Assembly (NCBI GenBank): GCA_963924555.1
Contig: OZ004583.1
Span: forward strand, 9,252,582 to 9,316,581
DNA: 64,000 nt
From: Crambe crambe
Taxonomy: Eukaryota; Porifera; Demospongiae; Poecilosclerida; Crambeidae
Direction of reading: 5' to 3'
Below, piece by piece: positions 2,480 to 22,253 of the stretch (position 1 is the first letter of the stretch; each line of letters opens with the position of its first letter). The position numbers were made by a program, and so were the translations under genes. Under the pieces are notes generated by a model, which saw nothing but the letters and a program-made list of their open reading frames with translations, was not told where the DNA came from and made no database searches.

Positions 2480-3473
2480 ATGAAGGTTCTGATACTAGCA
2501 ATAGTTCTGCTGCAAGCAATAACTTCAATTCAAGGTATCATCTCCTTTCTGATATGTTATTGTATAATTGTTATTGTTGTGTGGTTGTTATTGTTGTTGT
2601 ACTTCTTGTCATTGTGTGGTTGTTGTGTGGTTGTTGTGGTTGTAGTTATTGTATAAGGTTTTATTAATTGTTATGTTAGGGCAAAGTCCAGGTCTCCCAG
2701 GTCCTCCAGGTCCCCCAGGCCGTGATGGCTTTGATGGACCAAGGGGGGACCCAGGTCCTCGAGGGGCACCAGGGAGGACAGGATCATCTGGCCCACCTGG
2801 AGATGTGGGACCTCCTGGTCCACAGGGACCTAAAGGATCAATAGGAATGATTGGACCACAGGGAGATGTGGGTCCTGTGGGTGTACCGGGAGAGCCCGGC
2901 CAATGCTTGACAACTTGTCCCCCAAGCTCTCCTGGTCCACTGGTGGGTGGAGTCACTTACACCAGGTGGGGCAACTCCAGTTGTCGTTCAGGAGCAGATC
3001 TGGTATACGCTGGCAGGACTGGAGGGACTTACGGTCAGCATCGAGGAGGAGCTGCCAACCACTTGTGTTTACCAGAAGACCCAGACTACATTGGTTTCAC
3101 CCCCGGAGTCCAGGGCTACAGTCAAGTCTATGGAGTGGAGTACGAAAAAACCATTGCTTCTGGTGATGCACAATATAATGCTCCATGTGCTGTCTGCAAT
3201 GTTCCTGACAAGTCCACCACTATCATGATTCCAGCTAAAACCACCTGTCCAACTGGGTGGATCAGAGAGTACTATGGATACCTCATGACCGAGCGCAAGG
3301 AGTACAGACGTTCCATGTTTGAATGTGTGGATATCAGCATGGAGGCTATTCCTGGGAGTCGTGGTCATCAAGATGGAGGTCATTTTTACCCTGTTGAGGC
3401 TGAATGCAGTGGAATAGCATGTCCTCCTTACAACAACTTCAAAGAACTCACTTGTGCAGTGTGCACCAAGTGA
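2480..3473 (+). CDS. short-chain collagen C4-like protein, copy 1
   Basis: Two exons, 2480-2534 and 2680-3473, encode 282 residues. Exon 1 is exactly a signal peptide ([18 protein letters not shown]), so the product should be secreted. About 24 Gly-X-Y triplets follow, then a cysteine-rich C-terminal globular domain. That domain starts at [11 protein letters not shown] and contains [16 protein letters not shown]-like and ELTCAVC motifs, the hallmark of the sponge short-chain collagen family, which is thought to contribute to spongin and basement-membrane-like matrix. An RGD triplet (GPRGDPG) could bind integrin. This is the most divergent copy, with the shortest collagen stretch and an extra Cys pair (CLTTC) before the globular domain. 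It is also the only copy outside the CADPS gene, facing its 3' end tail to tail 196 bases away. Confidence 0.9.
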
Positions 3474-3669: not shown

Positions 3670-5415
3670 TCATGATTTGCCAACAGAGAGTAAGTCAATA
3701 TGTGAGTTCTCCACACGAATCCTATTCTGGACGGTGTCGTAGGTCTCTGACTCAAGCTGACCCGTTGACACATCACATGACAAAAAACTCTCGTAAAGTG
3801 TCTGCATCAGTAAACACCAGCTTAAAATAGAGGTCACTATAACACATGCAAACACCAACACATGCATGTCAAACTACATGTACATGTAACACCTCGTTAC
3901 ATGCATGTCAACTACATGTACACACCTTGAAGAGTGTCTGCGTGGAGCTGAGTTGTATTGGGTGGAGGGAAAACTCTGGTCTCTTCTCCAGCCACTGGGA
4001 GAGTAACTGCATCTGACACTCGTACCAATTCTAGGGGAGTAAAATTAGCAATTAATGTGGCATTGGTAGTATTTTAAGATGTACACTTACCACCACAAAG
4101 TTGTTGAAGATGGTAGTGACTAGGTGAGTGGAGATTAAGGTCAGGTTGGAGGAGAGGAACTCGGCAAAGGCATCTGTGGAGATGTGTGTGGGAATCTGAA
4201 GAGAAAATAAGGAAGCAAAGGTGACGAGGAAAAGAGGATGATGTGTGAATGTATCACAAAATTTAAGGTACTTATTGAAAATGATCTTGTAAAAAAGGAA
4301 AAAAAAAAAAAAAAAAAAAGTCAGGATTGGACCTGACCACTTTATATTCAAGTTTGAATTCTTACCATCATTTTGAGGGATGCAAGGAAACCCTCGCTGG
4401 GGTCAAACTTGTTGAGCTTGGTCAAGATGTCCTTGATGGGAGTGCAGAGTTTGTTGATCGCCATGGCTAGGGTAGCATTGAGGATGCTGGATAAATGTTC
4501 TTCAATGTTGAGGGTGTTGGCAAACTCCAGTGTTGACTCCTAAAGGAAAGAACCATGCAATTTTAAAAAGTTCTTACTCACACACTGGACTGTATTCTCA
4601 CATTTTGTGTCTCGGTTAGCTGTATTCTCTGAGAGGCACACACCTGCATCACCTGCATTTACAGTCACATGATCGTCACAAGATATCACATGATACCCAT
4701 TAGCCTATTAACTGACCTGTGCACTGAGGTAGACAAGGGTATTGATCATTGTGAAAGACTGGGGCTTCAGAGTGTAGTTAAGTGAAGACCCTTTACCTGA
4801 TGAAATCATGCTGCTGAATTGCACTTGGATTCTACGAATAAATAAACAACAATAAACAAATAAAGATAAATAAAATTCTACACTTGTGTACATGCTAGTG
4901 TCACATACACTTCAGCAGCCTCCTGGAAGCGATCGGCAGAAATGGCTGCCACCTTCTGGTCCAAGAAAGCGGCAAAACTCTCTTCAGGCCAACTCAATTC
5001 GTTGAGGAAACGTTTGAAAGAGAGAAGAGAGTTCATGGCTCCTTCGATGGCACCACAACATTTGAGACTGCAGGGAGGAAGGGAGAGGGGAAGGGAGAGG
5101 GGAGGGGGAGGGGAGAGGGGAAGGGAGAGGGGAGGGGGAGGGGAGGGGAGGGGAGAGGGGAGAGAGGAAGGGAGAGGGGAAGGGAGAGGGAGGGGAGAAG
5201 GAGGGAATATAACTTTGAGGTGCTTGTAGTATCTCTCTGCTCACGTGACTGGAAGCCATGTTTCATGTGCGAGGGAAACGGCCAGTTCTTTTTTAAGTGT
5301 CTGTTCTAGAGTATCGATGTAAGAGATCACCACAGGAGTGAATTCTTTCAGGAAGTCACAATGGAACTCCTCCATCATCATGGTGGCTACAATACAGAGT
5401 TATAAAGAGTGAGTG

Positions 5416-5486
<71 letters not shown>

Positions 5487-8400
5487 ATACTAACACTGTG
5501 ATGAAAAGTAGTGGTTTAAGATATGGAAGAGTTGTAGCTTGAGGATGATATCATCATCACGAGCCATGGCTTCCCTCATATCCACTAGGAAGAATGACCA
5601 GAATGCATTGATGTGTGCTGAAAACACCTTTGATTGGTTGAACTCTTCCCAGTAGAAGTCGTGCAACTCGTACATAAATTCAATACAGAGTTTCGCAAGG
5701 TCAAACAACTTAGTCATAGGGAGAGGATCACCTTGTACAGAGTCCACAACTACAGTAAAACATCTAGTAAATCTAGTAATTTATCCAGTAATCTATAAAA
5801 TACTGATACTGGATTATAGTAATTTATCCAGTAATTTATAAAATACTGACACTTGTCTTACACTCAAGCTTGCTGTAGACCTGTTTGTAGTTGATGAGTG
5901 CTGCCTTCTCCATGGAGAGGGTGAGCAACTTCAGGGGACTGTCTTCCATAGAGCCTCTGGATGAGTGGTTGATGGTGGACACCTGGAAGAGGGGTGGGAC
6001 AAAGGGGAGTGGCAGGGGGTGTGGTATATACTGCACGTTAAGGAATGACGACAGGCTTACCAAGTCAAAGAGTTTGAGAGTTGTCCTGAGGTCTGCTTTA
6101 GGACAACAGAAGGGGAAGTATATCCTAAAGTTCTGTAGCTGGTAAACAACCACTTCCTCTATGCGTTGACACACCTCCACAAACACTTCCCTCTCCTCTG
6201 TCGTCACAATCACTGACTTCTCGGGGGGGCTGCAGGGGACAGTAAGGGGGAGGAGGGACAGTAAGTGGGGCTCAGGAGGGAGGGGGGACATTGAGGGGGC
6301 TAGGGACTCAGGAGGGAGGGAGGGGGGACTGAGGGGGTTCATGACTCAGGAGGGAGGGGGGATTCATCATTATTTTAATTAACAGGGGCTCACTTCATTC
6401 CACCCACGTGCATCTGACAGAATCTGAATGAGGATTGAATCATGACGGGCCAAATGGAGACACCATTTTCCAAGTGGTCCAGCCAGTCCTGGAGACAAGT
6501 GAGATGTCTGAAGGGGTCACGGATCCCATAGCGAGCACAGAACTCGTCCAACACATACATCTGGGGAGGGGAGAAGAGGCCTCGACTAAAGACATCCTCC
6601 GAGAGCCTGAACTCCAAAGTGGTCCGGAAGAGACGGATAAAGAGTTTGTGGAAGTCCATGGAAGTGATGTCATTCACACTGTCTACCACCTTCTTCAGAC
6701 CATAACGCTCAAGATCAGTAGAACCAGCTGTGGATATGGGAGGAAGAGGAGGGAGAATAATAGGGAAAGAAAGATGGTGCGGGAGAAAGTTAAGGGGATA
6801 ACTTTATGGTTGGCTGCATTAGACTGACCTCTCATGACCTCTTGGACCCCAAGTTGCTGGGGTTGGTAGCTTTGCCCCGTCCCTCTTACCATCCACTCAA
6901 TCCAGCTCTGTCTCTCTGCATCATCACGACAACCAAAGTGGATGCGACCCATTTCAGAACGCTCAAAAACAAGATCAAACACAAACTTGGCATCCAGTTC
7001 ATCCTTCAAAGGACCTAGTATAGAGGGGCAAGAAGTTAATTGACAGTATCCTGGTAGTCTACCGAGTATCCTAGTAGTATACTGAGTAAGTGAGTAATAG
7101 TATACTAATATACTTTAAGTATCCTGGCAGCTAGGGAATTACCATCATCAGAGGCATATTCGACAGTGAGTCCATCAAGGAGGACACTGTCCTTGGGTTG
7201 GGTGCCATTGGGCTGGTAGGAACACAGGAGAAACTTGTATTGGGAGAGTTGGATCAGGGTGAAGAACCGTCTCTTGCACTGTTTGAACATGGAGTCACCA
7301 ACAGCCACTAAGTAGCTGGAAAGAAATGAAATACAAGAATAGTACTTACCCACACTCTATTCCATACCATGTTATAGTACTTACCCACACTCTATTCCAT
7401 ACCATGTTATAGTACTTACCCACACTCTATTCCATACCATGTTATAGTACTTACCCACACTCTATTCCATACCATGTTATAGTACTTACCCACACTCTAT
7501 TCCATACCATGTTATAGTACTTACCCACACTCTATTCCATACCATGTTATAGTACTTACCCACACTCTATTCCATTCCATGTTATAGTACTTACCCACAC
7601 TCTATTCCATACCATGTTATAGTACTTACCCACACTCTATTCCATACCATGTTATAGTACTTACCCACACTCTATTCCATACCATGTTATAGTACTTACC
7701 CACACTCTATTCCATACCATGTTATAGTACTTACCCACACTCTATTCCATACCATGTTATAGTACTTACCCACACTCTATTCCATACCATGTTATAGTAC
7801 TTACCCACACTTCTTAATGCTACTTGGTCTCTCCACTATGGTGGATATCTTTAGCTTGGCGACAGGTGGGGTACTACTATCCTTCTTCAAGTCCTTCTCT
7901 GTCAGGTAGAAACCAATGGTGGAGTACAGGTCAATAGAGCTGGGCACGGCTGTGTGAACATGCTGAAGAGAAGGAGGTCATTTCATACTTACTACTGTGG
8001 CAATAAGTGTGTGGACCACTGTGCTAACCTTGGACCACTGTACTAACCTTGACTATGAGGACCACTGTACTAACCTTGGCAATGAGGACCACTGTACTAA
8101 CCTTGGCAATGAGGACCACTGTACTAACCTTGACTATGAGGATCCACTGTACTAACCTTGACTATGAGGATCCACTGTACTAACCTTGACTATGAGGACC
8201 ACTGTACTAACCTTGGCAATGAGGACCACTGTACTAACCTTGGCAATGAGGACCACTGTACTAACCTTGACTATGAGGACCATTGTACTAACCTTGGCTA
8301 TGAGGACCACTGTACTAACCTTGACTATGAGGACCACTGTACTAACCTTGACTATGAGGACCATTGTACTAACCTTGGCTATGAGTTTGCTGTCACGTAG

Positions 8401-11400
8401 CAGACCCTTAGAGACACTCCTCAACTCCAACTTGATCATGGGGGTGGGAGAGTGTACCCAGAACTCACCCTCCTCACCAAACCTGCAGGAGATACAGATC
8501 CTCTTGTAACAAGACGAGACAATGTCTATATCTACAGACTAAGGGGAAACACTCTTCACTTTAATAATACCCATATCTAAGGGAAAGCTTCAAGATAGAC
8601 TTAATTCCTTAGAAAAGTAGGGAGAGTTATATGCTTACGTTGCACTTGCATATTCTGGTTCAACCGGTTGAGTCCGCAAGGGGTCACCTCCACCTTCCAG
8701 CAGCTACAATGGAGTTAATCAATCAATTACATTGCACCTACTCCTTAATTAATGCATGCATGGGTTATCATTATTGCACCTACTCCTTAATTAATGCATG
8801 CATGGGTTATCATTATTGCACCTACTCCTTAACTAATGCATGCATGGGTTATCATTATTGCACCTACTCCTTAATTAATGTGATACTTACTCCAAACACA
8901 CAGAATAGGTTTTTCCCTTCATATGCTGGTTGGATCTCTGTGATCTCATGGATAGTGACCTTTATCTTCAGGTTGAAATGGAGGTCTTGCTTAGACACTG
9001 GCATGTTCCCAGACTCTGATACGATACCCTTCCTATAAGGGTGTGTGGTCAAAGGGTGTGATCAGTAATCATGATAAACTCTAAATCTAGATTAATGGTG
9101 AACGAAACAAGCCACTAGGGGGTTCAATGAGAGGGTGCTATTAATAATTTATATCGTACATATGTTTGTCCTTTGCAGTTCCAATAAGGTGACGTCAACA
9201 GCTTCGCTCGCCACAATGCCTAGTTAGTGAACACGCTTACGGTAATACTGGATGGTCTAGTTAGATAGGTTTTATTAAAATAACAAACAGATGGACACGT
9301 GTCAGTCTCGTGCTATTGGGCTAGCGTTATCACCACCAAAAGGAATGACCAATCAGATTGAGTCTGGGCTAGCATCATCATTATTGCCAAAAGAAATGAC
9401 CAATCACATTGAGGGACTCGCATAAAAGCACAGATTCTTCCATCCCGCGTCTATTTTCTGAGAAGTGAAGCAAAGGAGAGTTGAAATCATGAAGGTTCTG
9501 ATATTAGCAATAGTTGTGCTGCAAGTAATAACTTCTATACAAGGTAGGTACTGTAGTCTTTGAGCTACAATTATCTTCACAAGACCAGCTGTGGAATTTC
9601 CTATGTGTCTGTATTTATAATTTATTTGTTGTTGTTGGTATTATTATTATTATTATTGTACTGTCATCCTCATAATGTACACAGGACAGCAGCGTGTATC
9701 GAGTGGGGATGGGTCTAATGATGTGAATCGTCAGCGAGTTAGATTCCTTCATGGACGTGATGGTCTGCCGGGAAGAGATGGTAGAGATGGACCTCCAGGT
9801 TCCCCCGGTTTCCCTGGCTTCCCTGGACACAAGGGAGAACCAGGCCTTCAAGGACAAGTTGGGAAAAAGGGAGAACGTGGTATCCATGGTGATCAAGGAC
9901 CACAGGGCAATGTGGGTCCACCAGGAACTAAAGGGGAACGTGGATTATCAGGACTAACAGGATCACCCGGTCTCCCTGGACACAAGGGAGAACCAGGCCC
10001 TCGGGGACAAGTTGGAGAAAAGGGAAAACGTGGTTTTCGTGGTGATGCAGGGCCGCAGGGCACCTCAGGACCCCAAGGAAATTCAGGTTTGCAAGGAGTT
10101 GCTGGACCGAAGGGAGACATGGGTCCACCAGGACGAAATGGGCTGCGTGGATTACCAGGACCAACTGGTCCTCAAGGAGTGGTTGGACCGAAGGGAGACA
10201 TGGGTCCACCAGGAATAAAAGGGGCCAAGGGATCTCCCAGTCCACTGGTGGGTGGAGTCACTTACACCAGGTGGGGGAAGTCTAGCTGTCGTTCAGGGGT
10301 CAACCTAGTGTATGCTGGAAGGACTGGAAGGTCCAAATATAACAATGGTGGTGGTGCTGACGATTTGTGCATGCCAAACAATCCACAATACAGCAACTAT
10401 AGACCAGGAGTACAAGGTTACAGTCATGTGTACGGAGTGGAATATGAAGATACTATTACAGCTGGAGGTGCACAACACAATGCTCCATGTGCTGTCTGCA
10501 ATGTTCCTGACAAGTCCACCACTATCATGATTCCAGCTAGACTCGATTGTCCCACTGGGTGGACCAGAGAGTACTATGGGTATCTCATGACTGAACGCTA
10601 CAGTCATTCTTTGTTTGAATGTGTGGATGTCAGCATGGAAGCCATACCTGGGACTCTTGGTCATCATGATGGAGGTCACCTTTACCATGTAGAAGCTGTC
10701 TGCAGTGGAATACCATGTGGTCCCTATAACAACTACAAGGAACTCACTTGTGCAGTGTGCAGCAAGTAAACAGAAATTTTTAAAATATTGTGTAGATAAG
10801 ACATGCTGATTTCACACTTTACTAACCTTACCCTTGATGATTTCTTGTATACGTTTATAATGATCAGTGCTACATTTCTGAGCATGCGCATAAAGTGGGT
10901 GCATCATGAAAACAGGTGGGTGGCTTCAAGTGTGAGTATGAAGTGTGAGTATGCCCCCTGGTACTGGAGAAGTTAAATTAGGACTTTATGAAGAAGGGGC
11001 TCTTTCCTCTTTCCTTGAACACAGTGTCATAATCTCAGGAATCCAGGAAACTCCATAGAGAGTCACAAGGCCCAACATACTCTTCTCATCACCCTGGCTA
11101 AATTAGGTTTCAGTGGTGGGTGGAGTCACTTACACCAGGTGGGGGAAGTCTAGTTGTCATTCAGGAGTCAACCTATTGTACGCTGGAAGGCCAAACATGA
11201 CCATGGTGGTGGTGCCAACTCCCAACAATCCACAATTATATACCAGGAGTACAAGGTCACATTTTTATGTACAGAGTGGAATATGAACACACTGTTACAG
11301 CTGGAGGCGCACAACACAATGCTCCATGTGCTGTCTGCAATGTTCAATGTTCATTCATCATACACAAAATTTTATGTATTATTTCGTGTCTAATTAAGCG

Positions 11401-14400
11401 CATGCACATGCAACTTATATACCAGGCCCTTCGCTTTTCCACCGCCCCGTGAAAAAAGCAGGCCTGGTTACGAGGCTAGTCCACCTCTATCATGATTCCA
11501 GCTAGACTCGATTGTCCCACTGAGTGAGTGGACCAGAGAGTACTATGGATACCTTATGATGGCTGAACATAAGACCTACAGATGTTTCATGTTTGAATGT
11601 GTGGATGTTGCATTGCCTGGGACTCGTGGTCATCATGATGGAGGTCACTTTTACCATATCGAAGTAGTGTGTGGTTCAATGCCATGTGGTCCCTATAACA
11701 ACTACAAGGAACTCACTTGTGCAGTGTGCAGCAAGTGATATGAACTTTATTGCACATAATTATGTCTAATTACATGCCATACTGTGCATCTGGTTCCAAA
11801 AAATGGTAGGTTTTCAGGTTACTTATTCAGCTGCTGCATGTGGTAAGATAAAGTGATAAAGTCATTCATCATCATGAACTTCTCTGAACCTGGAGGGTTA
11901 GGAGGCAGAGATAAGCCGGAATGGTAAGGTCAAGAGTAGGGTGATAAGACTCATTTCATTGTGCCAGACTAAATGAACAGCTGAATAAGAGAGTTCGTTA
12001 CCATGGTTAGAGCCCTTATCATGCTGAGGGGGAACAAAAGCTACCACGTCCTAATTGGTTTTAGTATAAAAGTACTGATTCTTTCCATCTTTTTCCATTG
12101 TGCCTGTCATCAGAGAATAGGAGATGGACATTATGAAGGTGCTACTAGTGGCAATAGTCGTGCTGCAAGCAATAACTTCAATACAAGGTATATCTGTACT
12201 ATGATAGTTAAAATCACTATGGTTCATTACGTTTGCACACAGGACAGCAGCGTGTATCGAGTGGGGATGGGTCTGATGATGTAAATCGTCAGCGAGTTAG
12301 ATTCCTTCATGGACGTGATGGTCTGCCAGGAAGAGATGGTAGAGATGGACCTCCAGGTTCCCCCGGTTTCCCTGGCTTCCCTGGACACAAGGGGGAACCA
12401 GGCCATCAAGGACAAGTTGGCGAAAAGGGAGAACGTGGTATCCATGGTGATGCAGGGCCACAGGGCACCTCAGGACCCCAAGGAAATTCAGGCTTGCAAG
12501 GAGTTGCTGGACCAAAGGGAGACATGGGTCCACCAGGACGAAATGGGCTGCGTGGATTACCAGGACCAACTGGTCCTCAAGGTTTTCAAGGAGTGGCTGG
12601 ACCGAGGGGAGAGATGGGTCCACCAGGAATAAAAGGGGCTAAGGGCTCTCCCAGTCCACTGGTGGGTGGAGTCACTTACACCAGGTGGGGGAAGTCTAGC
12701 TGTCGTTCAGGGGTCAACCTAGTGTATGCTGGAAGGACTGGAATGCCCAAACATGACCAAGGAGGTGGTGCTGACTATTTGTGCATGCCCAACAATCCAC
12801 AATACAGCAACTATATACCAGGAGTACAAGGTAGCAGTCATGTGTACGGAGTGGAATATGAAGACACTATTACAGCTGGAAATGCACAACATAATGCTCC
12901 ATGTGCTGTCTGCAATGTTCCTGGCAAGTCCACCACTATCATGATTCCAGCTAGACTTGATTGTCCCACTGGGTGGACCAGAGAGTACTTTGGATATCTC
13001 ATGACTGAACATAAGATATACAGACGTTCCACGTTTGAATGCGTGGATGTTGCATTGGAGGTTATTCCTGGGACTCGTGGTCATCATGATGGAGGTCACC
13101 TTTTCCATGTTGAAGTAGTTTGTGGTTCAATGCCATGTGGTCCCTATAACAACTACAAGGAACTCACTTGTGCAGTGTGCAGCAAGTAAACTATGAACAG
13201 AAATTTTAAAAAATATTGTGTAGATAAGACATGCAACACACACTGATTTCACACTTTACTAACCTTACCCTTGATGATTGCTTGTACACGTTTATAATGA
13301 TCAGTGCTACATTTCTGAGCATTCATGAAAACAAGTGGGCAGTTTTAAGTGTGAGCATGCCCCCTGGTGGACTAGAGAAGTAAATTAGAACTTTATGAAG
13401 AAGGGCTCTTTCCTCCTTCCTTGAACACAGTGTCATAATCTTAGGCATCCAAAGAGAGTCACAACCTTACATCTTCCCAGAGGCCCAACATCTCTTCTCA
13501 TCACCCTGGCTACAATTAGGTTTCAGTGGTGGGTGGAGTCACTTACACCAGGTGGGGGAAGTCTAGTCAACCTATTGTACGCTGGAAGGACTGGAGGGTC
13601 CAAACATGACCAAGGTGGTGGTGCCAACTCCCAACAATCCGCAATTATATAGCAGGAGTACAAGGTCACAGTTATATGTACGGAGTGGAATATGAACACA
13701 CTGTTACAGCTAGCTGGAGGTGCACAACACAATGCTCCATGTGCTGTCTGCAATGTTCCTGACAAGTCCACCACTATCATGATTCCAGCTAGACTCGATT
13801 GTCCCACTGGGTGGACCAGAGAGTACTCATGGCTGAACATAAAGATTTAAGATGTGCTACATATGAATGTGTGGATATCAGCATGGAGGCAGTTCCTGGG
13901 ACTCGTGGTCATCATGATGGAGGTCACCTTTACCATGTAGAAGCTGTCTGCAGTGGAATACCATGTGGTTCCTATAACAACTACAAGGAACTCACTTGTG
14001 CAGTGTGCAGCAAGTGAAGAACACACAGTGACTGGCTACATTAGAACCATCTATAATATGTTGTGGTAAAAAATTAATGCTTCTGATTTCATACTGAGCA
14101 TGTGCAGTAGCAATTATACAAATATAAGTGGTTTCACCATCCCCAGGTGACTATAAGATCAATGTTAAAAAGGAGGAGCTGATTCAATATTTTTGCAAGG
14201 GTAAAAGTAGGCTTGAAGGACTGGCCTTGACGTGATGGAACAGATGGTGACACGCCATCAAAATGTAAGAGAATATGACCAGAGAGTGAAAATGTAAGAG
14301 AATATGACCAGATAATACGGCTAGTGGTCACTATCAAAATGACCTGATGATTGAATCACCATCAAGCCATATCCCGATTGGAAATATGACCTGACTCTAG

Positions 14401-17400
14401 CAGATGTAACATTAACAGATGGTATATGTCTGTAACCATCAACTGATTACACAATGATTGCATGACTACACGTGTACACTTAATAGATCAAAAAGGCTCG
14501 GTATAAAAGACTTTCAGCCTCATTCTATCAGAAAAGCAAAGGAGAGTTGTTATTATGAAGTTGCTATTAGTTACAATAGTTGCGCTGCAAGCAATAACTG
14601 CAATACAAGGCATGTGATAAAGTTATATTGTGTCTGTGGTCACCTTTTTTCCCTTTAAAATTGATTTCCTTAATGAACACAGGGCAGCAGCATGTATCGA
14701 GTGGGGATGGGTCTAATGACGTGAGTCGTCAGCGAGTTAGATTCCTTCATGGACGTGATGGTCTGCCGGGAAGAGATGGTAGAGATGGACCTCCAGGTTC
14801 CCCCGGATTCCCTGGCTTCCCTGGACACAAGGGAGAACCAGGCCTTCAAGGACAAGTTGCGAAAAAGGGAGAACGTGGTATCCATGGTGATCAAGGACCA
14901 CAGGGCAACGTGGGTCCACCAGGAACTAAAGGGGAACGAGGGCTAACAGGATCACCCGGTCTCCCTGGACACAAGGGAGAATCAGGCCCTCGGGGACGAA
15001 TTGGAGAAAAGGGAGAACGTGGTTTCCATGGTGATGCAGGGCCGCAGGGCACCTCAGGACCCCAAGGAAATTCAGGTTTGCAAGGAGTTGCTGGACCAAA
15101 GGGAGACATGGGTCCACCAGGACAAAATGGGCTGCGTGGATTACCAGGACCAACTGGTCCTCAAGGTTCTCAAGGAGTGGCTGGACTAAAAGGAGACATG
15201 GGTCCATCAGGAATAAAAGGGGCCAAGGGATCTCCCAGTCCACTGGTGGGTGGAGTCACTTACACAAGGTGGGGGAAGTCTAGCTGTCGTTCAGGGGTCA
15301 ACCTGGTGTATGCTGGAAGGACTGGAGGATCTTATCAAAGTCATGGAGGTGGTGTCAACTACTTGTGCATGCCCAGCAATCCACAATACAGCAATCATAT
15401 ACCAGGAGTACAAGGTTATAGTCATATATACGGAGTGGAATATGAAAACACTATTACAGCTGGAGGTGCACAACACAATGCTCCATGTGCTGTCTGCAAT
15501 GTTCCTGGCAAGTCCACCACTATCATGATTCCAGCTAGACTCAATTGTCCCACTGGGTGGACCAGAGAGTACTATGGCTACCTCATGGCTGAACATAAAG
15601 ATTCAAGACGTGCTACATATGAATGTGTGGACATCAGCATGGAGGCAGTTCCTGGGACTCGTGGTCATCATAATGGAGGTCACTTTTTCCATGTTGAAGT
15701 AGTTTGTGGTTCGATGCCATGTGGTCCCTATAACAACTACAAGGAACTCACTTGTGCAGTGTGCAGCAAGTGAAGAACACACAGTGACTGGCTACATTAG
15801 AACCATCTATAATATGTTGTGGTAAAAAATTAATGCCTCTGATTGTATATTTTTCATACTGAGCATGTGCAGTAGCAATTATAAGTGGTTTCACCATCCC
15901 CAGGTGACTATAAGATCAATGTTAAAAAGGAGGAGCTGATTCAATATTTTTACAAGGGGTAAAAGTAGGCTTGAAGGACTGGCCTTGACGTGATGGAACA
16001 GATGGTGGCACACCATCAAAATGTAAGAGAATATGACCAGATAATACAGCTAGTGGTCACCATTAAAATGACCTGATGATTGAATTGAGAGAGTGGTCAC
16101 CATCAAGCCATATACTGATTGGAAATATGCTCTAACATTAACAGATGGTATACGTCTGTAATCATCAACTGATTACATAATAATTATGATGATTCCTTAA
16201 TAGATCAAAAAACTCGATATAAAAGACTTTCAGCTTGTCTGTAGAAAAGCAAAGGAGAGTTATTATTATGAAGTTGCTACTAACTACGATAGTTGTGCTG
16301 CAAGCAATAACTGCAATACAAGGTATGTGATAAAGTTACAGTTCAGTTATCGTGTACTTCTGTTATAACAGTGGTCACCATTTTTTCTTTTCTTTTTCTT
16401 TATAATTGATTTCCTTAATGAACACAGGGCAGCAGGTGGGGATGGGTCTAATGACGTAAGTCGTCAGCAAGTTAGATTCCTTCATGGACGTGATGGTCTG
16501 CCGGGAAGAGATGGTAGAGATGGACCTCCAGGTTCCCCAGGTTTCCCTGGCTTCCCTGGACACAAGGGAGAACTAGGCCATCAAGGACAAGTTGGCGAAA
16601 AGGGAGAACGTGGTATCCGTGGTGATGCAGGGCCACAGGGCATCTCAGGACCCCAAGGAAATAGAGGTTTGCAAGGAGTTCCTGGATCGAAGGGAGACAT
16701 GGGTCCATCAGGACAAAATGGGCTGCATGGATTACCAGGTCCTCAAGGTCCTCAAGGTTCCCGAAGAGTGGCTGGACCGAAGGGAAACATGGGTCCACCA
16801 GGAATAAAAGGGGCCAAGGGATCTCCCAGTCCACTGGTGGGTGGAGTCACTTACACCAGGTGGGGAAAGTCTAGCTGTCGTTCAGGAGTCAACCTAGTGT
16901 ATGCTGGAAGGGCCGGCGCACCTTTTGAAAGCCAAGGAGGTGGTGCCAACTACTTGTGTATGCCCAACAATCCACAACATACCTGGAGTACAGGGTCAAG
17001 TCATATGTACGGAGTGGAATATGAAGGAAACATCGTACATGGAGGTGTACAACACGATGCTCCATGTGCTGTCTGCAATGTTCCTGACAAGTCCACCACT
17101 ATCATGATTCTAGCTAGACTCGATTGTCCCACTGGGTGGATCAGAGAGTACTTTGGATATCTCATGACTGAACATAAGACATACAGACGTTCTATGTTTG
17201 AATGCGTGGATGTTGCATTGGAGGCTATTCCTGGGACTCGTGGTCATCATGATGGAGGTCACTTTTACCACGTTGAAGTAGTTTGTGGTTCAATGCCATG
17301 TGGTCCCTATAACAACTACAAGGAACTCACTTGTGCAGTGTGCAGCAAGTGAAGAACAGACAGTGACTGGCTACATTAGAACCATCTACTATATTGTTGT

Positions 17401-20400
17401 GGTAAAAAATTAATGCATCTGATTGCATATTTTCATACTGAGCATGTGCAGTAGCAATTGAATAAATTATACAAATGTAGGTGAGACTATAAGGACCAAT
17501 GTTAAAAAGGAGGAGCTGATTCAATATTTTGCAAGGGGTAAGACCTGTAAGAGTTATAAAGTAGGCTTGAAGGACTAGCCTTGATGTGGAATCTATAATC
17601 ACTGGACTGGACTGGACTACTGGACTCCAAAATTTAACCACGAAAACCAATTATTGGCCTATCATTCTAACTTGCCTCAGTCCTTGTCTTGCTTTTCAAA
17701 GTCTCAAGCATGGCTATCTCTATGCTCAATGAAAAATGGACCTGGAGAGGTTATGTATCAGCCCCCTAAAGTGTGCATCATCACCAGTGGTCTGATCCAG
17801 AAAGTTTGTCATCAGGTCTGGATGTTGATCCAGAAAGGTCCTTGTAGTAAGAGTTACCTAAGCACAGAGTCCTTCAAAAGGAAGGAAATAGATTGATGGC
17901 TACAGCATAGCTAGTGTTCATTGCACATTAGCAATCCTTTCAGCTCTCTCACTGTTTCACAGTGACCTCTAGATAGTGCTTTAGGACAAGGACTGAGGCA
18001 AGTCCAGTCCAGTGATTACAGACTCCCACCTTTGACGTGATGGAACAGATGGTGGCACACTATCTAAATGTAAGAGAATATGACCAGAGAGTGAAAATGT
18101 AAGAGAATATGACCAGATAATACGGCTAGTGGTGAATTGAGAGAGTGGTCACCATCAAACCATATCCCAATTGGAAATATGATAAGATTGTATGACTAGA
18201 TTAAAAAGGCTCGGTATAAAAGACTTTCAGCTCGCCTGTCAGAAAAGCAAAGGAGAGTTGTTATTATGAAGTTGCTATTAACTACAATAGTTATGCTGCA
18301 AGCAATAAGTGCAATACAAGGTATGAGATAAAGTTACAGTTCAGTTACTGTGTCTTTGTGTACTTCTGTTATAACAGTGGTCACCTTTTTCTTTTCTTTT
18401 CTTTTTCTTTATAATTGATTTCCTTTATGCACACAGGGCAACAGCATGTATCAAGTGGGGATGGGTCTAATGACGTGAGTCATCAGCGAGTTAGGTTCCT
18501 TCATGGACGTGATGGTCTGCCAGGAAGAGATGGTAGAGATGGACCTCCAGGTTCCCCCGGTTTCCCTGGCTTCCCTGGACACAAGGGAGAACCAGGCCTT
18601 CAAGGACAAGTTGGAAAAAAAGGAGAACGTGGTTTCCGTGGTGATGCAGGACTGCAGGGCCCCTCAGGACCCCAAGGAAATAGAGGCTTGCAAGGAGTTG
18701 CTGGACCGAAGGGAGACATGGGTCCACCAGGACAAAATGGGCTGCATGGATTACCAGGACCAACTGGTCCTCAAGGTTCTCAAGGAGTGGCTGGACCGAA
18801 GGGAGACATGGGTCCACCAGGAATAAAAGGGCCCAAGGGATCTCCCAGTCCACTGGTGGGTGGAGTCACTTACACCAGGTGGGGGAAGTCTAGCTGTCGT
18901 TCAGGGGTCAACCTAGTGTACGCTGGAAGGGCTGGAGTATCCAAACATGACCAAGGAGGTGGTGTCAACTACTTGTGCATGCCCAACAATCCTGACTACA
19001 TTGCCTATATACCAGGAGTACAGGGTCACAGTTATTTGTATGGAGTGGAATATGAATTCACCGTCTCATCTGGAAGTGCACAACATAATGCTCCATGCGC
19101 TGTCTGCAATGTTCCTGACAAGTCCACCACTATCATGATTCCAGCTAAAACCACTTGTCCCACTGGGTGGACCAGAGAGTACTATGGATATCTTATGACT
19201 GAATCTAGGATCTATAAACGATTTACATTTGAATGTGTGGATGTCAACATGGAGATGGTTCCTGGGACTCGTGGTCATCATGATGCAGGTCACTTTTTCC
19301 ATGTAGAAGCAGTCTGCAGCGGAATACCATGTGGTCCCTCTGCCTATAACAACTACAAGGAACTCACTTGTGCATTGTGCAGCAAGTAACTATGAATAGA
19401 GATTGGTTATTTGTAGATAAGATATATCACTTTACTACTACTTTCTTGATTATTTCATTTCTGAGCATGCGCATGAAGTGGGCGTATCATGAAAACAGGT
19501 GGGCAGCTTCAAGTGTGAGCATGCCCCCTGGTGGACTGGAGGGACTTTATGAAGAAGGGGCTCTTTCCTCCTTCCTTGAACAGAGCATCAAAATCTTAGG
19601 CATTCAGGAAACTCCATAGAGAGTCACAACCTTACATCTTCCCAGAGGCCCAACATCTCCCTGGCTACCAGTGCCCGAGCATGGAATTTTGTAAACCACA
19701 CACACAGACACACTTCACTTGTTATGTCAACAGGTAATGTTAATTGTGTACATAAGTCACATATGCTATGTGTATCAGTATCAAAAATTTTTTCCTTTAA
19801 AATAAACACTCTTTCTGGTTTTAAAGCCACCCCACCTTCACTCCAGAATAAGACTACATGCTAGAGCATGCCAAATAAATCCCCCCATATAATTCTCTTA
19901 CTTTTTCTTTCTGTCGATGGTGCCTATGTTGGAGCCCCCCTGAAGAGAGAGCTGGTCCAGGTTGTTGTTCAAATGTTTCAACATCTTATGCTGCTCCTCT
20001 CTGTAAATCTCCTCCACCTTACGACTCCCAAACTTGTCTCCCCCACTCACAATATTCTGTCAGTTGAAGGACACACACAAGTAACCGGAAGTGAAGGAAA
20101 GGATGCAATTAAACTCACCCTATCCAGCATTTTCTTGCGTGCTTGCAACTCTCTTCGGACCACTGCCTCTTGCTCCTCTGGGTTGCCAAGCTAGAGGACA
20201 GATTTGAATGACCAACTCCTATAACGTCTGTTCTTCCATACCCCACCCACTAACACTCCCCACCCCCTACAATCCTGCCAAACCCACTCACCAAATGCAT
20301 GCATGATCACATGACACTCCACTTCTGCCACACCTCCTCCTGCCCACTCACCCAATGTGTATCATATCTCCACACAGATCACATGACATTCATGTGATAT

Positions 20401-22253
20401 GACATCACACCCCCCACTCACCTTACACTCCCTATAGAGGACCTGGTGTTCTATACTCCGTATCTTGAGAATCTGCTGAAAGAGCTTGTACAACTTGTCC
20501 TGGTTGGGAACAGCTGCAGAAGAAGTACCACTAGAAATAGAAGCTTTAGTCTGGTAGGTGGGGCTACCTCGCCCCACAAAAGCCCGGCTACACTGCTCCA
20601 CAATCTTCCGGAACGTGCAGCACCAAAGAGATACTTCAGAACTCTTCACATCATTCTTAGCATCTGTCAAAAGAGTGACTGCTTTGATCTTAAAAATAGC
20701 TTCCAATTCCTTGGCAGAGAAGCCTCCATTCTTGATCATATCGACCACTTCAGGACAAGCTAACACCACATCCAACATCCACTGCACACAAAACCTGAAA
20801 TTCTTACTCTTGGCAATGTCGTTTTCCTGAGCCGTCAGCTTACTCTGACACTCCCGAGCTATCTTTTGAAAGTCTTCCACTGTTGCTCTAAGTGTCCGAT
20901 AAATGTGACCAAACCGTTCTGAATTGAGTTTAGCAGGAGGAGGGCAGTTCTCTATCTGATACTTTGCGTTGAAGGGGTACGCCACACATCGAGCGACCAA
21001 CAGATAGAGTTTCTTCTGCTCCATGTCTTCACTATCCTTTTTGTTATCCTCTGAAACGTTTTCTTCGTCTCCACTTTGACCTCCTTCAATCATCATCCAG
21101 TCATCCAACAAAATGGTGGATGATCGTTTATCTGAACAGCAAAAGAAATAGATTTGTTGTTAGTAAAGGGTGATGACGTAGTAACCACATGGTCACAAAA
21201 GAATGTTATTGGTGCTTTTTCCCCTCATTTTATAGTTAGTTATGTGGAGTTTATGAGATGCAGGAACTTCCTTGGCAACCACATGTGGACAGGATGTCTA
21301 ATCCTTTGAAGGCATTCTGTCTGGAAAAGGGTCAAACAAGTGCAAATTCTTTGATACAAGGTGTCTGTTATAAGAATGGCCACTGATCAAAGTGCAAATA
21401 AATATTATTTAGCAGAAGTTGAAGTGGTAACAGTGCAAGAATAGGCTTCTTGGAATTGACAGGTCTGCAAAGTGAACAAGGTAGCATTTAGCCTCGTTCC
21501 CAGGCCCATTAAAAAAAAATAGGCCTGGGAACGAGGCTAGGTAGCATTGAGCACATGTTGTATGACTGCTGACATTTCCATGGCAATGAAAATTAATGTT
21601 TCTGTTTCGGTATGCTTCAGAATGATAATGTTTTCATAGTGCAATCTTTGGTATGTTTCCTATGCAAACCATATGTGGTTCTGTCCACTTGTAAACAAGG
21701 GCTAGGGTTAGTTATGACAACATCAACTATTGGAGCTTCTCTGGAATCTTAATGTTAAACCCACTTCTACAAGCAATACCACTCAATGCTAAAATGTTTT
21801 TGGAACTAAGATTAGAGAGGCATCTCACCACAACATACATATACACATACCTTTGGAGACGATGACATAGTCATCTGGAAATGGGGACCCAGATCTCGAT
21901 CCTGGCTGTGACCCCTGGTATGACCCCCGTCGTGACCCCTGGTATGACCCCCGACGTGACCCCTGGAGGGAGCCCTGCAGCGAATCTCCAGAGTCCGAAT
22001 CCTTCCCCTTGAGGCTGAGGAAATTGCCACCAATACTCCCATGTCTATCCGCCTCGATATCACCCATGTCAATGCTTTTCAGTGAGAGGGTGAGGGAAGC
22101 AGTGGAGTCCTGGGTAATAACACTTTTAAACTGCCCTGGGCCCACAGAAATAGAAGTCCGAGGGGTGTCTGTAACCTTCCGACGGTGAACCATGTACAAG
22201 GAGCCCTCCTCTTCATCACTACTCTCCGAGCTATCGGCTTCTTCCGGCATCAT
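3670..22253 (-). CDS. CADPS: calcium-dependent secretion activator (CADPS/CAPS)
   Basis: Twenty-one coding exons on the minus strand, in transcript order: 21851-22253, 20422-21132, 20119-20190, 19902-20056, 8891-9032, 8639-8703, 8374-8482, 7805-7962, 7143-7315, 6829-7014, 6394-6727, 6061-6229, 5862-5982, 5497-5749, 5245-5386, 4911-5067, 4717-4831, 4366-4539, 4091-4195, 3926-4030, 3670-3801. The sum is 3,981 nt, or 1,326 residues, close to the roughly 1,350 of vertebrate CAPS. CAPS primes dense-core vesicles for Ca2+-triggered exocytosis at the plasma membrane. Residues 1-134 are acidic and Ser-rich with a repeated GSYQGSRR block. Next come the CAPS N-terminal region ([16 protein letters not shown]), a C2 domain near 455-550, a PH domain near 603-710 (ending RGTGQSYQP), and the MUN/CAPS region ([35 protein letters not shown]). 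Intron 4, 10,869 bp, holds five collagen genes. The start chosen is the first of two adjacent ATGs, after an acceptor-like CCCTAG; any 5' UTR exon is unplaced. Confidence 0.9.
5069..5206. repeat. polypurine GGGGAGA-type tract in a CADPS intron
   Basis: About 140 bases almost purely of A and G on the plus strand. On the sense (minus) strand it is a long polypyrimidine tract directly before the acceptor at 5067/5068, so it also serves as an extreme polypyrimidine tract for that exon. Confidence 0.85.
5418..5483. repeat. (GA)n microsatellite
   Basis: About 33 uninterrupted GA dinucleotides in the CADPS intron between exons 5245-5386 and 5497-5749. Confidence 0.95.
7341..7804. repeat. 35-bp minisatellite, about 13 copies, each with a 5' splice site
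   Basis: Near-perfect 35-bp units fill the intron between CADPS exons 7805-7962 and 7143-7315. On the sense strand every unit contains GTGTGG|GTAAGTAC, which is the donor of the upstream exon. The array is therefore an amplified exon/intron junction. One unit near 7575 differs by a base. Confidence 0.95.
8011..8373. repeat. 27-bp minisatellite, about 12 copies, each with a 5' splice site
   Basis: Units of 27 bp (two of 28) abut CADPS exon 8374-8482. On the sense strand each carries CAAG|GTTAGTAC, the same donor as the exon edge. Because 27 is a multiple of three, reading through gives an open stretch of 9-residue hydrophobic repeats (VSTVVLIVK type) until the first 28-bp unit. Confidence 0.95.
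8732..8880. repeat. 42-bp tandem repeat, about 3.5 copies
   Basis: Units containing ATTAATGCATGCATGGG lie in the CADPS intron between exons 8891-9032 and 8639-8703. This is a third tandem array within three neighbouring introns, but unlike the other two it does not contain the splice donor. Confidence 0.9.
9421..9428 (+). promoter_or_regulatory. TATA-like box of collagen 2
   Basis: CATAAAAG lies 68 bases before the collagen 2 ATG. The shared leader motif AGCAAAGGAGAGTT follows at about 9471, just ahead of the ATG. Confidence 0.6.
9489..10769 (+). CDS. short-chain collagen C4-like protein, copy 2
   Basis: Exons 9489-9543 (signal peptide [18 protein letters not shown]) and 9685-10769 encode 379 residues. 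A short linker ([10 protein letters not shown]) precedes 54 uninterrupted Gly-X-Y triplets, including GFRGDAG with an RGD site. The globular domain beginning [12 protein letters not shown] and ending LTCAVCSK follows. The triplet region is 16 triplets longer than in copies 3, 5 and 6; the extra block repeats the [13 protein letters not shown] segment, suggesting internal duplication. It is the first of five copies inside CADPS intron 4 and is transcribed against CADPS. Its 3' flank (10770-11110) recurs after copies 3 and 6. Confidence 0.9.
10770..11111 (+). repeat. duplicated 3' flank of collagen copies 2, 3 and 6
   Basis: Non-coding sequence with landmarks CTGAGCATG, ATGCCCCCTGGT and GGGCTCTTTCCTC. 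The same landmarks recur in order at about 13200-13520 and 19400-19660, which marks the boundaries of the duplicated units. No gene is seen in it. Confidence 0.7.
11112..11738 (+). pseudogene. collagen C-terminal-domain fragment A
   Basis: Only the globular domain is represented, from GGTGGGTGGAGTCAC to the terminal LTCAVCSK codons and TGA. It has no promoter, signal exon or Gly-X-Y region. It is disrupted by small indels and by about 130 bases of foreign sequence at 11346-11478. The 3' end remains in frame over the last 60 codons. A non-functional relic is likely. Use of its 3' part as an alternative exon cannot be excluded, since TTTCAG immediately precedes the homology. Confidence 0.8.
11346..11478. 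mobile_element. small foldback-type insertion in collagen fragment A
   Basis: This segment replaces about 7 bases of the collagen sequence (CTGACAA). Its end contains CCAGGCC...AGGCCTGGTTACGAGGCTAG, closely resembling the hairpin element at 21491-21540. The left limit is set only by loss of collagen homology. Confidence 0.55.
11739..12064 (+). other. intergenic spacer before collagen 3
   Basis: No coding exon, RNA gene or repeat is recognised here. It is upstream sequence of collagen 3 within CADPS intron 4. Confidence 0.5.
12065..12072 (+). promoter_or_regulatory. TATA box of collagen 3
   Basis: TATAAAAG lies 68 bases before the collagen 3 ATG. Confidence 0.7.
12133..13189 (+). CDS. short-chain collagen C4-like protein, copy 3
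   Basis: Exons 12133-12187 (signal peptide) and 12243-13189 encode 333 residues. The intron is only 55 bp. Thirty-eight Gly-X-Y triplets precede the conserved Cys-rich globular domain. The position that reads GFRGDA or GIRGDA in copies 2, 5 and 6 reads GIHGDA here, so the RGD is lost. The C-terminal stretch contains the [15 protein letters not shown] variant also found in copies 4 and 5. It lies antisense inside CADPS intron 4. Confidence 0.9.
13190..13523 (+). repeat. duplicated 3' flank of collagen 3
   Basis: Homologous to 10770-11111 with small indels. Together with copy 3 and fragment B it mirrors the arrangement of copy 2 plus fragment A, so gene, flank and fragment were duplicated as one unit. 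Confidence 0.7.
13524..14017 (+). pseudogene. collagen C-terminal-domain fragment B
   Basis: Globular-domain relic without promoter, signal exon or triplets. Relative to intact copies it lacks about 14 bases after GGGGAAGTCTAG, lacks part of the Cys-containing loop, has an AGCTAGCTGG insertion-like change, and lacks codons around the GYLM site. These disrupt the frame. The last 70 codons are open and end LTCAVCSK. Its 3' flank (GAAGAACACACAGTGACTGG) matches the flanks of copies 4 and 5. Confidence 0.8.
14018..14501 (+). repeat. duplicated upstream region of collagens 4, 5 and 6
   Basis: Landmarks such as AAAAAGGAGGAGCTGATTCA, GACGTGATGGAACAGATGG and GTAAGAGAATATGACCAG recur at about 15780-16210 and 17353-18210. 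These are long duplicated promoter-side blocks, with no gene seen. Confidence 0.7.
14502..14509 (+). promoter_or_regulatory. TATA box of collagen 4
   Basis: TATAAAAG lies 53 bases before the ATG. The leader motif AGAAAAGCAAAGGAGAGTTG, shared with copy 6 and nearly with copy 5, lies between the two. Confidence 0.75.
14555..15773 (+). CDS. short-chain collagen C4-like protein, copy 4
   Basis: Exons 14555-14609 (signal peptide beginning [12 protein letters not shown]) and 14683-15773 encode 381 residues. Unlike its sisters, the intron donor is GC (CAAG|GCATGTGA) instead of GT, with the usual AG acceptor. There are 54 triplets, with one Gly-to-Ala break (GQVAKKGER); copies 2 and 6 read GKK and copies 3 and 5 read GEK at that triplet. 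The RGD position reads GFHGDA. The globular domain is complete. It lies antisense inside CADPS intron 4. The GC donor is a legal minor class and the gene otherwise looks intact. Confidence 0.87.
15774..16217 (+). repeat. duplicated spacer upstream of collagen 5
   Basis: Clear homologue of 14018-14501 with deletions. No gene is visible. Confidence 0.65.
16218..16225 (+). promoter_or_regulatory. TATA box of collagen 5
   Basis: TATAAAAG lies 50 bases before the ATG of collagen 5. Confidence 0.75.
16268..17352 (+). CDS. short-chain collagen C4-like protein, copy 5 (shifted splice acceptor)
   Basis: Exon 1 is 16268-16322. Exon 2 is probably 16436-17352, giving 323 residues. A 10-base deletion removes CATGTATCGA just after the usual acceptor. 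Splicing at the family's normal AG (16426-16427) would meet a TAA within about ten codons. Two further AGs, ending at 16432 and 16435, restore the frame; splicing there loses 5 or 6 linker residues only. The 38 triplets have a Gly-to-Arg break (GSRRVAGPK) and an RGD site (GIRGDAG). The globular domain differs at several places ([14 protein letters not shown]). It is probably functional through the shifted acceptor; otherwise it is a recent pseudogene. Confidence 0.7.
17589..18031. mobile_element. non-autonomous DNA transposon (hAT-like MITE)
   Basis: A 443-bp insertion interrupts the collagen upstream block. Its ends are inverted repeats (TCTATAATCACTGGAC at 17592, the inverse of GTCCAGTGATTACAGA at the right end). 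It is flanked by 8-bp near-identical target repeats TTGATGTG (17581-17588) and TTGACGTG (18032-18039). No transposase is encoded. The 8-bp duplication is the basis for the hAT suggestion. Confidence 0.7.
18040..18214 (+). repeat. remainder of the duplicated upstream block of collagen 6
   Basis: Continues the homology interrupted by the MITE, with GTAAGAGAATATGACCAG present twice, and leads into the promoter of copy 6. Confidence 0.6.
18215..18222 (+). promoter_or_regulatory. TATA box of collagen 6
   Basis: TATAAAAG lies 51 bases before the ATG of collagen 6, with AGAAAAGCAAAGGAGAGTTG between. Confidence 0.75.
18266..19389 (+). CDS. short-chain collagen C4-like protein, copy 6
   Basis: Exons 18266-18320 and 18437-19389 encode 335 residues. 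A signal peptide ([12 protein letters not shown]), linker and 38 uninterrupted triplets with GFRGDAG are followed by the globular domain. The domain is the most diverged of copies 2-6: [11 protein letters not shown] in place of the ITAGGAQHN type, a two-residue insertion (GPSAYNNYK), and ALCSK rather than AVCSK at the end. It is the last array member, about 510 bases before CADPS exon 4. Confidence 0.9.
19390..19901 (+). other. spacer between collagen 6 and CADPS exon 4
   Basis: The first roughly 270 bases repeat the 3' flank found after collagens 2 and 3. The rest shows no feature apart from the CADPS donor at 19900-19901. Confidence 0.6.
21491..21540. mobile_element. 50-bp hairpin element with target duplication
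   Basis: Perfect 16-base arms (GCCTCGTTCCCAGGCC / GGCCTGGGAACGAGGC, the second at 21522-21537) surround an A-rich loop. The flanks GTAGCATTTA (21481-21490) and GTAGCATTGA (21541-21550) look like a target-site duplication. It lies in CADPS intron 1 and shares its right end with the insertion in collagen fragment A. Confidence 0.75.

What the first reader, a model, noticed from the sequence alone, without database searches (positions are those of the whole stretch)
9033..19901. Array of antisense collagen genes nested in one CADPS intron
The CADPS N-terminal exons (19902-22253) and the rest of the gene (3670-9032) are separated by one intron. The split codon across it joins in phase (AA|G), and the total coding length is a multiple of three. 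Within this 10,869-bp intron lie five intact short-chain collagens and two fragments, all transcribed against CADPS. A sixth copy sits just past the CADPS 3' end. A matrix-gene family expanding inside a secretion-machinery gene is unusual. It raises questions of transcriptional interference and of joint regulation in secretory cells.
Basis: partly seen in the sequence, partly recalled or inferred. Interest (0 to 1): 0.85.

Follow-up and report, generated by a model that had tools for sequence, protein, structure and literature searches.

The report
Collagen gene array inside CADPS intron
A row of short sponge-type collagen genes sits backwards inside one intron of the CADPS gene, and the same collagen family turns out to sit backwards inside introns of at least five other unrelated genes of this genome.

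Summary
The array is real. CADPS is one 22-exon, 1344-codon gene on the minus strand, the only CADPS found in this genome. Its 10,869-bp fourth intron (9033-19901) holds five plus-strand short-chain collagen genes and two fragments; a sixth gene lies past the CADPS 3' end.

Corrections: four intronic copies are intact. Copy 4 has lost 10 bases and is out of frame unless an acceptor 5 bases downstream is used; copy 3 has a GC donor.

The collagens belong to a very large family (150 scored matches, fragments included).

New here: repetition. Of 15 places examined, 6 are antisense in a host intron (CADPS, an NPHP4-like gene, a CaV-like channel, RAD9, a xylosyltransferase, a dynein heavy chain), none was seen sense-nested, 1 is intergenic, and 8 have no host established. 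The hosts share no obvious function, so a special tie to secretion is unsupported.

Best reading: small genes with their own TATA-like promoters land in introns, survive in antisense and multiply by unequal crossing-over. Nested genes are common in sponges; repeated nesting of one matrix family may be new. Expression and synteny were not testable.

The parts
   Evidence: Splice model, one frame, GT-AG at 21 of 21 introns; Pfam PH and MUN; PDB CAPS chains 7vs3, 1wi1, 6a68; 21 of 21 genome matches at this locus
9033..19901 (-). CADPS intron 4, 10,869 bp, phase 2, host of the array
   Evidence: the other 20 introns are 60-719 bp
2480..3473 (+). Collagen gene C0 (exons 2480-2534 and 2680-3473), outside CADPS, past its 3' end; TATAAAAG box starts at 2432
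   Evidence: Two-exon model, open frame; Pfam Collagen
9489..10769 (+). Collagen gene C1 (exons 9489-9543 and 9685-10769); CATAAAAG box starts at 9421
   Evidence: Pfam Collagen
11110..11738 (+). Collagen fragment F1: two pieces of the C-terminal domain (11213-11347 and 11523-11735) split by an inserted stretch; outer limits approximate
   Evidence: the stretch is partly similar to repeats in L007, L008, L013, L014
12133..13189 (+). Collagen gene C2 (exons 12133-12187 and 12243-13189); TATAAAAG box starts at 12065
13523..14017 (+). Collagen fragment F2: C-terminal domain only, with stops and frame breaks; outer limits approximate
14555..15773 (+). Collagen gene C3 (exons 14555-14609 and 14683-15773), GC donor; TATAAAAG box starts at 14502
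   Evidence: Pfam Collagen
16268..17352 (+). Collagen gene C4 (exon 1 16268-16322; exon 2 from 16428 is out of frame, from 16433 in frame; to 17352); TATAAAAG box starts at 16218; doubtful
18266..19389 (+). Collagen gene C5 (exons 18266-18320 and 18437-19389); TATAAAAG box starts at 18215

Best explanation
A tandem array of short-chain (spongin-type) collagen genes nested antisense in one CADPS intron, and one instance of a repeated pattern in which this matrix-gene family occupies introns of unrelated genes. Shown: the array, the host frame across it, strand, paralogy, constraint on the copies, and the same arrangement at five other hosts (one of them by domain order only). Inferred: a small two-exon gene with its own TATA-like promoter arrives by DNA-based duplication (its intron is kept, so not by retroposition); it is tolerated because its splice and 3'-end signals are not read from the host strand; it then multiplies inside the intron by unequal crossing-over, leaving fragments; each copy is transcribed from its own promoter and the host transcript splices the whole array out.
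For: CADPS frame unbroken across the intron. Two-exon collagen copies, each with a TATA-like box 48-68 bases before the ATG. dN/dS 0.32-0.63 over 15 pairs. One clade. Shared spacers and flanks along the array. The same antisense nesting at an NPHP4-like gene (11 exons, 558 aa, no stop), RAD9 (the genome's only three Rad9 matches), a CaV-like channel, a xylosyltransferase and a dynein heavy chain. Poly(A) signals readable by the host in the intron are few: 3 seen, 7.9 expected from base composition, P=0.045.
Against: No transcript is available for host or collagens. No library model covers CADPS exons 1-4. After C1, C2 and C5 no AATAAA or ATTAAA lies within 300 bases. The NPHP4-like and CaV-like names are partly by eye, and the CaV frame was not spliced across its array. 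Of 15 places, 8 have no host established and 1 (L032) is not nested. How copies reach new introns is unknown.
Confidence: 0.75

Rival explanations
1. Ordinary nesting by chance: in a compact sponge genome many genes are nested, and a very large family of small genes falls into introns at the general rate; nothing about collagen is special.
For: Nested genes are 12.4% in A. vastus, 3358 of 43,615 in Amphimedon and 5032 of 32,309 in Sycon (PMC10282587 passages). 5 of 14 places (window left out, unresolved counted as not nested) has P=0.003 at 7.7%, 0.022 at 12.4%, 0.054 at 15.6% and 0.13 at 20%. Opposite strand in 6 of 6 is within a mammal-like bias of about 76% (P=0.19). The three further arrays were the nearest relatives of the window array, not a random sample.
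Against: All four arrays whose two flanks were read are nested, in four unrelated genes, and unresolved places may hide more.
Confidence: 0.4
2. Functional coupling: the collagens stay in CADPS because host and guest are regulated together, or against each other, in secretory cells.
For: CADPS acts in regulated secretion; Nematostella spongin-like proteins are mostly expressed in neuroglandular cells (PMC12549020 passages).
Against: Other hosts of the same family include RAD9, an NPHP4-like gene, a dynein heavy chain, a channel and a xylosyltransferase. C0 lies outside CADPS.
Confidence: 0.07
3. Two separate genes, or an assembly join: exons 1-4 and 5-22 are not one gene and the array is merely between genes.
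For: Exons 1-4 match no library model used; exon 5 holds an in-frame ATG; repeats can mislead assemblers.
Against: Phase fits, no stop in 1344 codons, one locus in the genome, no N in the window. Other hosts show the same split, in the xylosyltransferase inside a single Pfam domain.
Confidence: 0.05

Closest known systems
Spongin short-chain collagens (the 'short-chain collagen C4' kind of sponges; Aouacheria et al. 2006, known here from papers citing it)
   Same: Signal peptide, short Gly-X-Y stretch, C-terminal cysteine-rich domain with ten conserved cysteines, no HSQ motif (PMC5395295 passages).
   Different: Homology to the collagen IV NC1 domain was not detected here by Pfam or PDB profiles. 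Likeness to the Ephydatia C4 chain is recalled. Nesting of the genes is not described in the passages seen.
Nested genes of compact sponge genomes (Aphrocallistes vastus, Amphimedon; glassin nested in another gene)
   Same: Small gene wholly inside an intron of another gene; common in sponges (PMC10282587 passages).
   Different: The passages seen describe no tandem array of one family nested antisense in several hosts; collagens there lie in tandem pairs at two loci.
Drosophila pupal cuticle gene in Gart; EVI2A, EVI2B and OMG in NF1 (recalled; a search for the first found no paper)
   Same: Opposite strand, unrelated function, within one intron; a structural matrix protein in Gart, several genes in one intron in NF1.
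   Different: Not a tandem family and not repeated over several hosts, as far as recalled.

Membership tests
Spongin short-chain collagens | Short collagenous domain joined to a C-terminal non-collagenous domain, with a signal peptide | tested here: met
   Pfam Collagen in the 3 copies scanned (C0, C1, C3); exon models of all six; signal peptide judged by eye
Spongin short-chain collagens | C-terminal domain homologous to collagen IV NC1 | tested here: inconclusive
   Pfam: no collagen IV domain in 18 of 18 members at E<=1; PDB profile search: nothing at E<=10; one single-sequence hit to a collagen IV NC1 domain at E=0.085; structure prediction failed
Spongin short-chain collagens | Seven cysteines shared with collagen IV plus three of their own; no HSQ motif | tested here: inconclusive
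   Ten conserved cysteine columns (8 in 18 of 18, 2 in 17 of 18) and HSQ in 0 of 18 rows; the number and the lack of HSQ fit, positions were not compared with collagen IV
Nested genes on opposite strands | Internal gene wholly inside an intron of an unrelated external gene, on the other strand | tested here: met
   the same at five more hosts
Nested genes on opposite strands | Internal and external gene both transcribed and processed | not testable with these tools
   No transcript data are held; TATA-like boxes are only suggestive
CADPS / CAPS | C2, PH and MUN domains in this order in one chain | tested here: met
   PDB CAPS chains over residues 467-714 (7vs3), 599-715 (1wi1) and 948-1105 (6a68); Pfam PH and MUN
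CADPS / CAPS | CADPS N-terminal region (exons 1-4) | tested here: inconclusive
   No Pfam or PDB match over exons 1-4; likeness to other animals' CADPS is recalled only

The most novel reading that the evidence does not exclude
The short-chain collagen family of this animal lives by preference in introns: antisense residence in host genes is its normal genomic niche, entered many times independently, and either aided by a mechanism of insertion or kept because host transcription or open chromatin gates which copies are expressed.
Probability: 0.25. Interest if true: 0.75.

Novelty: new variant of a known kind. Interest (0 to 1): 0.5.

Why it matters
Nested genes are usually treated as scattered accidents. 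One structural-protein family that sits antisense inside introns of six unrelated genes, in four of them as an array, would be a replicated natural test of how antisense arrays affect host transcription and why same-strand nests are purged. It is also a warning for annotation: gene finders that forbid nesting would split the hosts or drop the collagens.

Tried and rejected
Retroposition of the collagens: rejected, all six genes keep the first intron.

A mobile vehicle: no inverted repeat of 18 bases or more at the intron edges, and the edges match nothing outside the array in the sequence held. The stretch inside F1 is partly similar to repeats in L007, L008, L013 and L014.

Prokaryote relatives of the C-terminal domain: 13 pattern matches in genome contigs, none a relative by tblastn.

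Structure of the C-terminal domain: failed (mean pLDDT 27.3 on six near-identical rows); not repeated.

A codon-usage score for host exons was too weak to use. The bacterial-type promoter scan is not meaningful here. Frame-by-frame Pfam and PDB found no named relative of the NPHP4-like gene, and its spliced 558 aa gave no Pfam match and no PDB match better than E=0.81: the name is recalled from likeness, only the continuity of the frame is shown. The names of L032's neighbours and the CaV reading of the channel are by eye; Pfam says Ion_trans.

Literature: no paper holds 'short-chain collagen' with 'nested' and 'intron'; 'Gart' with 'cuticle protein', 'nested', 'intron' gave none. Other searches. 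Passages seen: PMC10282587, PMC3447736, PMC5395295, PMC12549020, PMC8467205, PMC5928047, PMC4704026. All other papers only as listings.

Fetched but left out of the count of 15: L039 and L044 (partial matches), L031 (one flank of a C11 array, read), L045 and L046 (left of the window).
Full report
The host. I rebuilt the minus-strand gene exon by exon. The final model has 22 exons from 22253 to 3670, GT-AG at all 21 introns, 4035 bases and one frame of 1344 codons. The finding's split codon holds: exon 4 ends at 19902 and exon 5 starts at 9032, both in phase 2. Residues 467-714 match a solved CAPS1 chain that includes the PH domain, 599-715 the PH domain and 948-1105 a further CAPS1 chain; Pfam gives PH and MUN. 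A search of the 143-Mb genome with the protein returns 21 matches, all at this locus. The array intron is 10,869 bp and the other 20 are 60-719 bp. Exons 1-4 match no library used; I place them in CADPS by phase and continuity. CADPS is listed among gene groups highly retained across animals, in a data set that includes sponges (PMC5928047 passages).

The array. Six collagen genes and two fragments lie on the plus strand. Each gene has a 55-base first exon coding a signal-peptide-like start, an intron of 55-145 bases, and a main exon with Gly-X-Y repeats and a C-terminal cysteine-rich domain. A TATAAAAG box (CATAAAAG in C1) starts 48-68 bases before each ATG. C3 has a GC donor. C4 lacks 10 bases just inside exon 2: with the acceptor used by the others it runs into a stop, with an acceptor 5 bases downstream it stays open. 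So 'five intact' should read four intact and one doubtful. F1 and F2 hold only pieces of the C-terminal domain; F2 carries stops, F1 is split. Shared spacers and flanks along the array fit unequal crossing-over.

Selection and descent. Pairwise dN/dS among the five intronic copies is 0.41-0.63 and against C0 0.32-0.39; dS is 0.14-0.22 and 0.63-0.70 (C4 with the downstream acceptor). In a tree of 41 C-terminal domains (6 window copies, 24 fetched relatives, 11 dispersed copies; not the whole family) the window copies are one clade (99/94), and they join the array at C5:5.66-5.72M in a clade of 99/97. C0 splits from the intronic five with weak support (85/56), under midpoint rooting. The genome search with the domain lists 150 matches, fragments included (195 candidates, 150 scored), mostly in tandem groups on C5, C6, C8, C9, C11 and C19.

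Other places. I examined 15 places: 4 arrays and 11 dispersed loci (L032-L038, L040-L043). Six are antisense inside a host intron. (1) CADPS. (2) An NPHP4-like gene on the minus strand: eleven exons join into 558 residues without a stop, and its 14,759-bp intron (C5:5701289-5716047) holds plus-strand matches at 5705589, 5709074, 5709210, 5710996, 5712598 and 5714726. Further exons down to about C5:5696880 were read by eye; six more matches of this array lie beyond, five on the plus strand and one (5688114) on the minus strand. The gene name is recalled. (3) A channel, CaV-like by eye, on the plus strand: Ion_trans pieces at C5:1243333-1244154 and 1257432-1257836 flank seven minus-strand matches at 1247707-1254997. 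The frame was not spliced across; the case rests on domain order and strand. (4) RAD9 on the plus strand: the genome's only three Rad9 matches lie at C19:5388535-5388741, 5401363-5401638 and 5402103-5402195. The frame joins at phase 0 across 5388739-5401494, with six minus-strand collagen matches between. (5) A xylosyltransferase on the plus strand of L034: Xylo_C positions 1-58 and 59-132 before and 124-179 after a minus-strand collagen; 3,157-bp intron. (6) A dynein heavy chain on the plus strand of L033: AAA_8 positions 227-258 before and MT 80-169 after a minus-strand collagen; 1,475-bp intron.

Against the pattern. L032 lies between two other genes on their strand and is not nested (by eye). 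For L035, L036, L037, L038, L040, L041, L042 and L043 I could establish no host; L037 and L042 have recognisable same-strand neighbours. No sense-nested case was seen. The further arrays were the nearest relatives of the window array, not a random sample. L039 and L044 were fetched but not examined.

How unusual. Nested genes make up 12.4% in A. vastus, 3358 of 43,615 (7.7%) in Amphimedon and 5032 of 32,309 (15.6%) in Sycon; the paper warns that the count depends on the annotation method (PMC10282587 passages; percentages for the last two). With the window left out and every unresolved place counted as not nested, 5 of 14 has P=0.003 at 7.7%, 0.022 at 12.4%, 0.054 at 15.6% and 0.13 at 20%. Antisense in 6 of 6 has P=0.031 against an even chance but 0.19 against a bias of 76%, about that of human and mouse. 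So the strand is as expected from purging of same-strand nests; repetition in one family is suggestive, not proved.

Mechanism. Shown: position, strand, frames, paralogy, constraint. Inferred: DNA-based dispersal of a small gene with its own promoter, survival in antisense because host splicing and 3' processing do not read its signals, then growth by unequal crossing-over. Host-strand poly(A) hexamers in the intron are few (3 seen, 7.9 expected from base composition, P=0.045), which fits but weakly. Not shown: any transcript. After C1, C2 and C5 no AATAAA or ATTAAA lies within 300 bases, so their 3' processing is open. The hosts (vesicle exocytosis, probable ciliary protein, ion channel, DNA-damage checkpoint, proteoglycan synthesis, motor; functions from general knowledge) share no obvious function, which speaks against a special tie between collagen and secretion. 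Leaning the other way, Nematostella spongin-like proteins are mostly expressed in neuroglandular cells (PMC12549020 passages).

Relation to known kinds. The collagens fit the spongin short-chain collagens in layout, number of conserved cysteines and lack of HSQ, but homology to collagen IV NC1 was not detected by the profiles used (one weak hit), so that point stays open. Sponges are known for many nested genes, glassin among them. In Amphimedon short-chain collagens are jointly upregulated in adults, and another family, scavenger receptors, lies in tandem arrays (PMC3447736 passages). I found no paper that joins short-chain collagens with nesting in introns (that library only). That the animal is a sponge fits all this but was not tested.

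Noticed in passing
L011 (C5:5688114-5689298, minus) and C5:5708684-5709265 (plus, in L048): The same C-terminal domain is joined to what looks like a membrane anchor and coiled-coil repeats in place of the collagen helix: possible membrane-bound relatives inside the sister array.
   Followed up: no
C13:6583816-6586338 (plus), outside the window: One 872-aa open frame holds collagen matches at a regular spacing of 297 bases.
   Followed up: no
window 7339-7811 and 8035-8387: CADPS introns hold tandem repeats of 35 and 27 bases; the repeated units carry copies of the donor-like sequence of the exon before them.
   Followed up: no
C19:5.39M array (L015, L017-L019) and C5:1.25M array (L020-L022): The copies nested in RAD9 and in the CaV-like gene are mixed in the tree, which suggests exchange between two hosts on different contigs.
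   Followed up: no
L041, 4173-4778 and 9154-9759 (plus): Two copies of a divergent member, alike over the residues printed, lie 4981 bases apart: a recent tandem duplication or an assembly duplicate.
   Followed up: no
window 46618-56892 (plus): An open frame of 3424 codons rich in Ser, Pro and Gln, with internal repeats.
   Followed up: no
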